Positions 3,715 to 31,455 of a stretch of 39,319 nt of DNA are shown here, piece by piece. The notes beneath the pieces were generated by a model. That model did not search any database. It saw only the letters and a program-made list of their open reading frames with translations, and was not told the DNA's origin. How positions within the stretch are numbered: the first letter of the stretch is position 1; every line of letters starts with the position of its first letter. Source of the stretch: an uncultured Prevotella sp. (lineage in GTDB: Bacteria > Bacteroidota > Bacteroidia > Bacteroidales > Bacteroidaceae); assembly GCA_934120735.1 (NCBI GenBank), contig CAKOVA010000014.1, positions 1 through 39,319 on the forward strand. The letters are read 5' to 3'. The translations under genes were made by a program, and so were the position numbers.

Positions 3715-3802
3715 CAATAGCATTGAGTTTGGTGGTCAAAGTCATTGCTATTGAGGGGTAAACTCATTGAGTTTGGCGGTCAAAGTCAATGCTATTGAAA
3801 AT
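3715..3802. repeat. 22-bp degenerate repeat array, copy A1 (4 units, partly inverted)
   Basis: Four consecutive 22-bp units begin at 3715, 3737, 3759 and 3781. Units 1 and 3 carry CATTGAGTTTGG. Units 2 and 4 begin CAAAGTCA and carry TTGCTATTG, which is close to the reverse complement of the unit-1 core. So units 1+2 form an imperfect inverted repeat with arms CAATAGCATTGAGTTTG and CAAAGTCATTGCTATTG. The array lies upstream of the nupG promoter. The same family occurs at 10091, 18753 and 31217. Confidence 0.75.
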
Positions 3803-3863: not shown

Positions 3864-3894
3864 TTTGCGCATTCTCACATTTAGCTTACCTTTG
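3864..3894 (+). promoter_or_regulatory. Consensus Bacteroidota promoter for the nupG operon
   Basis: TTTG at 3864-3867, a 19-bp spacer, and TACCTTTG at 3887-3894. The start codon is 153 bp downstream of the -7 box, so the mRNA would carry a long leader made almost wholly of the 65/66-bp tandem palindrome. Confidence 0.7.
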
Positions 3895-4021
3895 CATAAG
3901 ACAGCATCGCCTCGGCAACTTCAAACAAGCTTGGTTGCGCTCGGCTCGCACTGTCTTTGCATAAAACAGGCATCGCCTCGGCAACTCCAAACAAGCTTGG
4001 TTGCGCTCGGCTCGCACTGTC
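3891..4021. repeat. Tandem 65/66-bp imperfect palindrome in the nupG leader
   Basis: Two near-identical direct copies, 3891-3955 (65 bp) and 3956-4021 (66 bp), differ by two substitutions and one inserted G. Each begins TTTGCATAA, contains CTCGGCAACT and then ACAAGCTTGG at its centre, and ends GCTCGCACTGTC. Each copy is also an imperfect inverted repeat: GCATAAGACAG at the left arm matches CTGTCTTTGC at the right junction, and the centre CAAGCTTG is palindromic. In RNA each could fold into a long hairpin. The short reading frames crossing it have no supporting features and are treated as non-coding. Confidence 0.85.
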
Positions 4022-4047
4022 TTTGTATGACATAAATAATACATGAA

Positions 4048-10090: not shown

Positions 10091-10288
10091 CAAAAGCAAT
10101 GCCTTTGCCCTCCAATAGCAATGAGTTTGGGCACCAATAGCATTGAGTTTGGGCACCAATAGCATTGAGTTTGGTCACCAATAGCATTGAGTTTGGTGTC
10201 CAATAGCAATGACTTTGGTTACCAATAGCAATGAGTTTCCATTCCAATATGCATGCGCTTGCGTGGCAATCTACATATTATCTTGAAT
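10091..10288. repeat. 22-bp degenerate repeat array, copy A2 (about 8-9 units)
   Basis: Units start every 22 bp at 10091, 10113, 10135, 10157, 10179, 10201, 10223, 10245 and, faintly, 10267. Central units read CAATAGCATTGAGTTTGG plus four more bases ending in C. End units are more divergent: 10245 carries CAATATGCATGC, which recurs in array A3. The period is exact, but 22 is not a multiple of 3, so the array is not coding. It fills the gap between the convergent ABC permease and xanthine permease genes, next to the small RNA candidate. Confidence 0.9.
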
Positions 10289-18435: not shown

Positions 18436-19164
18436 GTAAATTTAGAAATAATTTATCTTAATGGCCGCGGCTCTCTCATTTCTGAAAGGTTGTTGGTTGC
18501 GAAAGACTGAATATCACATATTTATATAAACAAGGGTTATTAGGAATAAAACAACCTTTGATGACTATGTGTGGGATGATGGCTGAGTATTCGCCATCTT
18601 TATTCTAATATGTTAACAAACCTTTTATTTGTTAAATCAATTCATTTTATTTGACAAAACAAAATCGCAAAATAGAGAAAATAGGAGAATGTTTTAGGTG
18701 TTCAAAATCTTAAAATCATCATCTTTTACCTCATTCACAGAGATTAAACCAGCAATCTGCATGCTTTTGCAGTCTAATATTTATGCTCTTGCTCCTCAAT
18801 ATGCATGCTTTTACACCCCAATTTACATCATATAACACGCCTTTTTGTACAAAAACAAGTGCTTTCATCCTCAAAACACATCTCTTTTTCATGGTGATTT
18901 AGGTTTGTAAACCGTATAACTTATTATAAATCAATAAAATAATGAAACACCTCTATATTTCGCATATTTCCGGCGAATGAGTATGTTGGTGGATAAAATG
19001 CCCAGCATTTGTGTTAAAAAGTTGTTGTGACGGGAGCTGTTTCACCGAAGAAGGTTCCGTTCGATAGAATACAGATATAGCGCAATCATCATAAATGAAT
19101 GAGCTGTGCCGAAACGGCTTACAGGTTAATTTGTCATCACATCACCTACATTTTGTATACAGGC
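18436..19164. other. Long divergent gap without a gene
   Basis: About 730 bp between the acidic-protein promoter and the aspS promoter. I see no reading frame with gene-like features and no tRNA. It holds the A3 repeat array (18753-18840), an inverted repeat TTAACAAA/TTTGTTAA at 18613-18635 with a 7-nt loop, and a lone TAGGTTTG box at 18900-18907 with no -33 partner. Base composition is A/T-rich around 18600-18960 and more mixed after that. Confidence 0.6.
18753..18840. repeat. 22-bp degenerate repeat array, copy A3 (4 units)
   Basis: Units start at 18753, 18775, 18797 and 18819, an exact 22-bp period. Units 1 and 3 carry CAATCTGCATGC and CAATATGCATGC followed by TTTT; units 2 and 4 are weaker (TAATATTTATGC, CAATTTACAT). 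The shared TGCATGC variant also ends array A2. This is the most degraded of the four arrays. Confidence 0.7.
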
Positions 19165-31115: not shown

Positions 31116-31455
31116 AAACAATCTGTGAATATAAAAGTGGTAAATTTATTTAACGATTTTCCCTTTTGCGATGCTGTTTATAGCCATGCTTTACACAACG
31201 CATAGAGGATGGATTTCAATCTCCATGACTTTGGCGTCCAATCTCCATGACTTTGGCATCCAATCTCCATGACTTTGGTAGCCAAACTCAATGCTTTTGG
31301 AAGCCGTCTTCGCAACGTTTGATAATCATTTGTATATCAGCTGGTTATGGTGATTCTTATCTTGTGCGTGGGACTGACCTTTTGTGGTGATTAGCTGTTT
31401 TAAAGTTGTTGTTGTATTGCAATCTATCCTTGTGTAAAAATGATGACATTTTTGA
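31116..31455. other. Gap between prfA and pyrF
   Basis: About 340 bp without a gene-like frame or a -7 box on the minus strand. The only clear structure is the A4 array of 22-bp repeats at 31217-31304. If prfA and pyrF share a transcript, the array is transcribed. Confidence 0.6.
31217..31304. repeat. 22-bp degenerate repeat array, copy A4 (4 units)
   Basis: Units start at 31217, 31239, 31261 and 31283. The first three are nearly identical (CAATCTCCATGACTTTGG, then four varied bases ending in C). The fourth reads CAAACTCAATGCTTTTGG. Same period and same fixed positions as arrays A1-A3, but with CTCC where A2 has AGCA, so the arrays have homogenised separately. Confidence 0.85.

What the first reader, a model, noticed from the sequence alone, without database searches (positions are those of the whole stretch)
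10091..10288. A family of intergenic tandem repeats with an exact 22-bp period
Eight to nine units stand head to tail at exactly 22 bp in the gap between two convergent transporter genes. Three more gaps carry the same family at the same period: 3715, 18753 and 31217. Across all sixteen best units AA at positions 2-3 and TG at 10-11 are almost fixed; CAA(T/A) opens the unit, TTT(T/G)G lies at about 14-18, and position 22 is mostly C. Drift within an array keeps the length but changes the sequence, so spacing seems to be what is selected. 22 bp is close to two DNA helical turns, which would put each unit on the same face. It is not coding (22 is not a multiple of 3) and not CRISPR (no spacers). 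Possible roles are a multimeric DNA-protein site, chromosome organisation, or a mobile repeat. I know of no description.
Basis: seen in the sequence. Interest (0 to 1): 0.78.

Follow-up and report, generated by a model that had tools for sequence, protein, structure and literature searches.

The report
Palindromic 22-bp intergenic lattices in Prevotella
Some Prevotella species carry short intergenic blocks, typically about four palindromes set exactly 22 bases apart, which look like docking strips for an unknown DNA-binding protein and which one jumping element uses as its landing site.

Summary
The window belongs to the Hoylesella (Prevotella) buccalis complex. In nearest held genome G001 a strict two-unit pattern occurs 53 times, reversed control 0. 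Well-matched units there lie 22, 44 or 66 bp apart (86, 56, 28 pairs), rarely otherwise (5 pairs): the mark of four-unit blocks. Of 76 placeable arrays 70 lie in gene gaps, without orientation bias. Arrays are present at 13 of 13 resolvable orthologous loci; core positions differ at 5.9%, linkers at 24.9%. Half-sites show no significant RNA-type covariation in the buccalis group. An IS3-family element abuts arrays at 13 of 13 readable right ends, ten exactly in register. Distribution is patchy, essentially Prevotella-only. The RAYT domain is lacking in 7 of 11 array genomes and flanks are not conserved, so REP or BrickBuilt membership fails, though they behave like BIMEs. Best reading: binding lattice for an unidentified dimeric protein.

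The parts
3715..3797 (.). Four-unit palindromic 22-bp array (degenerate fifth unit to 3819), codirectional gap between gldB-like and nucleoside-symporter genes
   Evidence: core scores 10,10,9,10,6; ortholog L107 in G001 with 4 units; context, neighbours
10091..10261 (.). Eight-unit array, the one reported; degenerate ninth unit 10267-10288; convergent gap before a xanthine/uracil permease gene
   Evidence: Pfam PF00860 for the permease; relatives L016, L017, L108 carry 5, 7 and 5 units there
18753..18835 (.). Weak, degenerate array (units with a CATG centre); below the calling threshold
   Evidence: TRF score 70; core scores 8,7,7,5
31217..31299 (.). Four-unit array in a codirectional gap between OMP-decarboxylase and release-factor genes
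   Evidence: core scores 9,9,9,10; ortholog L204 in G001 with 4 units; neighbours by Pfam

Best explanation
Each array is a rigid binding lattice for an unidentified homodimeric DNA-binding protein. One dimer would sit on each 17-bp palindrome; dimers repeat every 22 bp, about two helical turns, so that commonly four (fewer or more in some species) lie side by side and make a compact nucleoprotein block in an intergenic region. Shown: palindrome, exact period, four units as the commonest number in the buccalis complex, mainly intergenic and orientation-neutral placement, conservation of place in the loci tested, slower change of the core than of the linkers, and use of the lattice register by an IS3-family element. 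Inferred: the protein, dimer binding, and the role of the block (an orientation-independent boundary or organiser between genes, comparable to what BIMEs are thought to do).
For: Palindromic consensus in G001, G071, G375. Spacing of units with at least 9 of 10 core bases: 86/56/28/3 pairs at 22/44/66/88 bp in G001 with 2 pairs elsewhere (77, 99), and 40/28/16/3 in G071 with 6 elsewhere; reversed control none. Four units in 35 of 51 G001 arrays and 18 of 28 G071 arrays. Orthologous loci: 13 of 13 resolvable with an array; core 31/529 differences, linker 51/205, triplets 37/318, flank 698/6916 over 12 alignable pairs. 70 arrays in gaps: 40 codirectional, 16 convergent, 14 divergent, expected by gap bases 39.6, 12.0, 18.4. 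No significant excess of complementary half-sites in the buccalis group. IS insertions keep the 22-bp register: 10 of 13 exactly, 3 of 13 off by one base. Other species keep the architecture with different letters between the core positions, as expected of a co-evolving protein-site pair.
Against: No binding protein was identified; gene families recurring beside arrays in three or more species were only TonB-type receptors and RidA. With a conservative correction for ascertainment (only changes in the second genome, 18/480, against half the divergence of the comparator) the core is still slower than the linker (p 5e-5) but not than flank (p 0.23) or triplets (p 0.22). Gene conversion or slippage could also keep cores alike: neighbouring units are more alike (0.57) than units of different arrays (0.42). 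366 of 398 genomes of the genus had no match to the survey pattern, so the function is not general. In G375 and G006 units or arrays are nearer perfect palindromes, so a hairpin role is not excluded there.
Confidence: 0.5

Rival explanations
1. A selfish or relict extragenic repeat family, like REP/BIME or a MITE, spread by a transposase now lost or unrecognised; conserved by descent only.
For: High copy number, extragenic placement, patchy families with species-specific letters, local likeness of neighbouring units, IS targeting as known for REPs (PMC1525189, passages).
Against: No RAYT-type transposase domain (PF01797) in 7 of 11 array-bearing genomes; no conserved leader, tail or terminal repeats; no empty site among 13 resolvable orthologous loci; a preferred unit number and slow core are unexpected for decaying relics.
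Confidence: 0.22
2. RNA-level element: tandem hairpins acting as transcription terminators or mRNA stabilisers at gene ends.
For: Palindromes; in G375 several arrays end in TTTTT and some lie within 20 bp of a gene end; within-unit complementarity exceeds shuffled in G375 (29 units); G006 has perfect long inverted repeats; in codirectional gaps 26 of 40 arrays are closer to the stop side (p 0.08).
Against: In G001+window the halves of a unit are complementary less often than shuffled (6% against 13% for all three variable bases, z -3.2), likewise across the linker (9% against 16%, z -2.5); divergent gaps hold 14 of 70 arrays; no Rfam match in the window.
Confidence: 0.13
3. Landing pads for the IS3-family element, kept by or made by it.
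For: 13 of 13 readable right ends lie beside an array, ten exactly in register.
Against: The element's end motif, with up to one mismatch, was found in only 2 of 10 array-bearing genomes; an exact search for one inner end sequence found nothing in the window; G001 has 14 right ends genome-wide but 51 arrays in the quarter of it that was fetched.
Confidence: 0.05
4. Ordinary minisatellites produced by replication slippage, without function.
For: Adjacent units more alike than distant ones; unit number differs at the 10091 locus between relatives and in 4 of 13 orthologous pairs.
Against: Same palindrome at scores of unrelated loci, preferred count of four, hardly any spacing other than multiples of 22, core conserved relative to linker.
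Confidence: 0.1

Closest known systems
BIME / REP (palindromic units) of enterobacteria and pseudomonads
   Same: Extragenic, palindromic, many copies, clustered, target of IS3-family elements (IS1397, ISKpn1, ISPsy8; passages of PMC1525189)
   Different: No GTAG or CGTC tag, no RAYT domain in 7 of 11 array genomes, a rigid 22-bp lattice with a preferred number of units
BrickBuilt minisatellite/MITE of Porphyromonas gingivalis (PMC4596501; abstract, section 5 and part 1 of section 7 read)
   Same: Bacteroidales, intergenic, imperfect direct repeats of similar length (23 nt), 19 loci
   Different: BrickBuilt has leader, tail and IS5-like terminal repeats and 1 to 22.8 units, and is not bisected by a full-length mobile element; here there are no conserved flanks, period 22, a palindrome, most often 4 units, and IS insertions
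Iterons and partition-site arrays of plasmids (recalled, not searched)
   Same: Tandem binding sites of about 20 bp in helical phase
   Different: Those are one or few loci next to a replication or partition gene; here dozens of chromosomal loci with varied neighbours
IS1397/ISKpn1 target choice
   Same: IS3-family element with specific insertion at extragenic palindromic repeats
   Different: Here insertion follows the lattice register, mostly at the array edge with the right end facing the array, in 7 of 13 cases one period outside the first recognisable unit

Membership tests
REP/BIME | Short extragenic palindromes in high copy | tested here: met
REP/BIME | GTAG or CGTC tetranucleotide tag at one end (PMC3733652, passages) | tested here: not met
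   unit profile and flank profile show no such tag
REP/BIME | Associated RAYT tyrosine transposase | tested here: not met
   PF01797 absent in 7 of 11 array-bearing genomes, present in 4 of 11; present in 13 of 20 genomes that had no pattern hit
BrickBuilt MITE | Leader and tail segments with terminal inverted repeats | tested here: not met
   96 flanks of four- and five-unit buccalis-complex arrays (flanks with the IS end left out): information content at most 0.33 bit per position
BrickBuilt MITE | Intergenic tandem repeat of 23 nt | tested here: not met
   period is 22
CRISPR array | Repeats separated by unique spacers of constant length | tested here: not met
   units adjoin with only a 5-bp linker
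MITE | Target-site duplication and empty orthologous sites | tested here: inconclusive
   no empty site among 13 resolvable orthologous loci; duplications around arrays not scored
RNA terminator/hairpin | Compensatory changes between arms | tested here: inconclusive
   fewer complementary halves than shuffled in G001+window and (within unit, all three bases) G071; positive signal in G375, 29 units
Intrinsically curved DNA | Higher predicted curvature than shuffled sequence | tested here: inconclusive
   arrays against shuffled: G001 0.0451/0.0453, G071 0.0493/0.0433, G554 0.0574/0.0432, G375 0.1005/0.0487; wedge parameters recalled, no significance test
Protein-binding array | A protein that binds it | not testable with these tools
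   no candidate found among neighbour genes
IS3 family (the inserted element) | OrfA with HTH, OrfB with integrase core, terminal inverted repeats, short target duplication | tested here: met
   PF01527 and PF00665; TGTCTTATACTGAAATAGC and TGTCTTTTCCTAAAATCGC ends; 3-base lists before left and after right ends agree, left-right pairs not physically linked

The most novel reading that the evidence does not exclude
The arrays nucleate a regular protein filament on DNA in living cells, and the IS3-family transposase reads that filament rather than the base sequence: it inserts on the 22-bp grid even one full period beyond the first recognisable unit, so the insertions are a fossil footprint of a chromosomal nucleoprotein lattice.
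Probability: 0.17. Interest if true: 0.85.

Novelty: new variant of a known kind. Interest (0 to 1): 0.62.

Why it matters
Prevotella is a major genus of the human mouth, gut and vagina (general knowledge). A family of tens to probably over a hundred short lattices per genome, kept at the same loci between sister species, most often with four units and with an exact period but with species-specific letters, points to an unknown DNA-binding protein that co-evolves with its sites. The test is simple: one pull-down with an 88-bp probe. The IS insertions in register give a natural probe of what occupies the DNA.

Tried and rejected
RNA families: no Rfam hit in the window. RAYT origin: PF01797 absent in 7 of 11 array genomes. 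Terminator or promoter role by gene orientation: no significant bias. RNA covariation: negative in the buccalis group, positive within units in G375. Intrinsic curvature: equal to shuffled in G001, somewhat higher in G071 and G554, twofold in G375; left open. Regular chromosomal spacing: 25 arrays on the single-contig G375 chromosome (positions collapsed by hand), gap variation 0.85 against 0.95 for random, 29.5% of random draws as low. Phage carriage: 46 viral contigs match the 33-base pattern, only one of them has a three-unit run and that is poor, so they look like chance matches. Partner protein by shared neighbour genes: nothing convincing. Bacteroidetes promoter elements (TTTG, TANNTTTG; recalled) were considered and dropped because the spacing does not fit; no test was run. 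Papers: the searches gave no description of these arrays that I could see; I saw only listings (20 of 72, 10 of 14) and passages of a few papers, and the library is open-access only.

Full report
WHERE IT IS. The permease beside the reported array is 99, 98 and 99% identical to those of Hoylesella (Prevotella) buccalis ATCC 35310, Prevotella sp. BV3P1 and MAG SUG2085; DNA identity to those loci is 94.2, 92.8 and 94.5%, so the window lies in the H. buccalis complex. Its own assembly is not held. The nearest held genome, G001, appears to be MAG SUG2085: its contig C95 and L018's contig are both 52,619 bases long.

THE OBSERVATION. All four period-22 sites exist. Three pass a palindromic core score; 18753 is degenerate. 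Twenty mononucleotide shuffles of the window gave none.

WHAT THE UNIT IS. Aligned on CAA, the unit is CAANNNCA-N-TGNNNTTG followed by five variable bases. It is a palindrome, and the linker TTG-N5-CAA is a second dyad, so the array reads the same on both strands. In window 3715 units 2 and 4 look like reversed copies of unit 1. Profiles from G001, G071 and G375 agree on CAA..CA.TG..TTG; letters between differ: the centre is A/T in G001 and G071 but mostly C/G in G375. All surveys used this core as the search pattern, so arrays with another core would have been missed.

HOW REGULAR. Counting pairs of well-matched units (at least 9 of 10 core bases) without any array caller, G001 stretches give 86 pairs at 22 bp, 56 at 44, 28 at 66, 3 at 88 and one each at 77 and 99; G071 gives 40, 28, 16, 3 and six at other spacings; reversed sequence gives none. 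The 3:2:1:0 fall is the signature of four-unit blocks. With an array caller, 35 of 51 G001 arrays and 18 of 28 G071 arrays have exactly four. Other species differ: G375 gives 3 to 6 with weak members (pairs 21, 12, 3, 1), G006 two or three, G554 three to five in 11 of 15. Most stretches were chosen because they hold hits or lie on contigs with hits, so densities (18 arrays in 276 kb of G001, 16 in 349 kb of G071, 10 in 400 kb of G375, reversed controls 0) are not blind estimates. In G554 the reversed control gave 1 against 15.

WHO HAS IT. Strict pair pattern in G001: 53 matches, reversed pattern 0. In 398 genomes of the same GTDB genus a pattern of one unit plus its neighbours' edges hits 32; 17 have two or more and 15 have one; the reversed control hits 2 genomes once each, so some singles may be chance. 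Highest: G001 61, G071 56, G209 40, G236 31, G375 20, G006 17. In a family draw of 301, hits are five genomes of the same genus (G001, G671 with 60, G554 with 7, two singles) and one single hit among 279 genomes of other genera, where the reversed control hit two. In a phylum draw of 392, besides G001, three single hits. So the family is patchy and, for this core, essentially limited to the genus.

WHERE IN THE GENOME. Using a simple ORF caller on G001, G071 and G375, 76 of 89 arrays could be placed (13 at stretch ends dropped): 70 in gaps and 6 inside called ORFs of 107 to 248 codons, possibly spurious. Of the 70, 40 are codirectional, 16 convergent and 14 divergent, not different from expectation; in codirectional gaps 26 of 40 are nearer the stop side (p 0.08). 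Some G001 and G071 arrays are orthologs, so counts are not independent. Flanks carry no conserved sequence apart from RAA after the last TTG and residual traces of the next lattice position.

CONSERVATION. Up to 51 G001 arrays (against G071 and G671 stretches) and 3 window arrays (against G001) were tried; 13 comparisons resolved, the rest lacking an orthologous stretch or flank. All 13 targets carry an array; the unit count is equal in 9 of 13. Over 12 alignable pairs, core positions differ at 31 of 529, triplets 37 of 318, centre 4 of 53, linker 51 of 205, flank 698 of 6916. Because references were chosen for matching the core, a conservative version counts only changes in the second genome (18 of 480) against half the comparator's divergence: still below the linker (p 5e-5) but not below flank (p 0.23) or triplets (p 0.22).

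NOT AN RNA HAIRPIN IN THIS GROUP. In G001 plus window (219 units) the variable triplets of the two halves are fully complementary in 6% against 13% after shuffling (z -3.2), and across the linker in 9% against 16% (z -2.5); G071 within units 4% against 13% (z -2.9), across the linker no clear difference. G375 (29 units) shows a positive within-unit signal (52% against 39%, z 2.0; z 5.6 at two positions). G006 has perfect long inverted repeats, e.g. at C24:38743. Units within an array are not independent, so z-values are optimistic.

THE IS3-FAMILY ELEMENT. Contig ends in G001 revealed a 1.6-kb element (C28:2-1601) with OrfA (PF01527) and OrfB (PF00665) and ends TGTCTTATACTGAAATAGC / GCGATTTTAGGAAAAGACA. 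14 right ends were found, 13 with readable flank. All 13 lie beside an array: the distance to the lattice is exactly 0 or 22 in ten and off by one base in three (L118, L119, L129); about 1.1% of sampled G001 sequence lies within 44 bp of an array. Of 16 left ends listed, 15 were read and only two have a unit within 66 bp (L194, L199), so the element mostly sits at array edges with its right end inward. The three bases after the right ends are matched, one for one, by three bases before left ends (left list has two extra), as expected of 3-bp target duplications; contigs break at the element, so pairs are not physically proven, and L129 is a diverged copy. In seven cases the first recognisable unit begins one lattice step further in; the step actually hit matches 2.7 of 8 core bases against 2.1 at random offsets (p 0.12, n 7), while ordinary array fringes match 3.1 (n 48, p 1.5e-7). 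A remnant in G071 (L183) is also in register by eye. IS1397, ISKpn1 and ISPsy8, also IS3 family, target REP palindromes, and experiments on the first two suggest that the transposases themselves are responsible (PMC1525189, passages), so targeting of extragenic palindromes by this family is established behaviour.

INTERPRETATION. The combination of palindromic core, free linker, exact two-turn period, preferred number, orientation-neutral intergenic placement and conservation of place is what a block of dimer sites for a DNA-binding protein should look like. It works like a BIME but is not a member: the tag is missing and so is the RAYT domain in most array genomes tested (7 of 11). It resembles BrickBuilt only in being an intergenic minisatellite of a Bacteroidales species. 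I could not name the protein or the benefit to the cell.

LIMITS. Crude ORF calling; G001 is a metagenome assembly and seems to mix strains; arrays were partly chosen by hits; only open-access papers were searched and mostly as listings, so 'no description found' rests.

Noticed in passing
window 3890-4025: A 66-bp tandem repeat, 2.1 copies, 95% match, lies about 90 bp right of the 3715 array; it is a different repeat.
   Followed up: no
L263:87-494, L230:1094-1471, L163:4212-4589: In three different Prevotella species an array lies in a convergent gap just downstream of a RidA-like gene, with different partner genes; BrickBuilt_18 of P. gingivalis also neighbours an L-PSP endoribonuclease gene (table in PMC4596501).
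   Followed up: partly
L108:5645-5749 and L205/L018 (G001 C15 end, C95 end): Two different versions of the permease-side array, one with and one without the IS3-family element, end different contigs of the same metagenome assembly: probably a strain mixture.
   Followed up: partly
L129:1419-1501 and L183:1398-1502: Arrays flanked on both sides by sequences like the right end of the IS3-family element, in two species; remnants of two copies or an array-carrying derivative.
   Followed up: partly
L221:953-1190 and G375 arrays L156, L159, L162: A second 22-bp unit type, CAAATCAA-N-TTGATTTG-like, stands with or continues arrays of the first type in the same register.
   Followed up: no
L222 and L223 (G337): Eight-unit arrays of a variant (CAARACCATAGCTTTTG-like) recur at two loci with similar flanks, unlike the four-unit blocks of the buccalis complex (by eye).
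   Followed up: no
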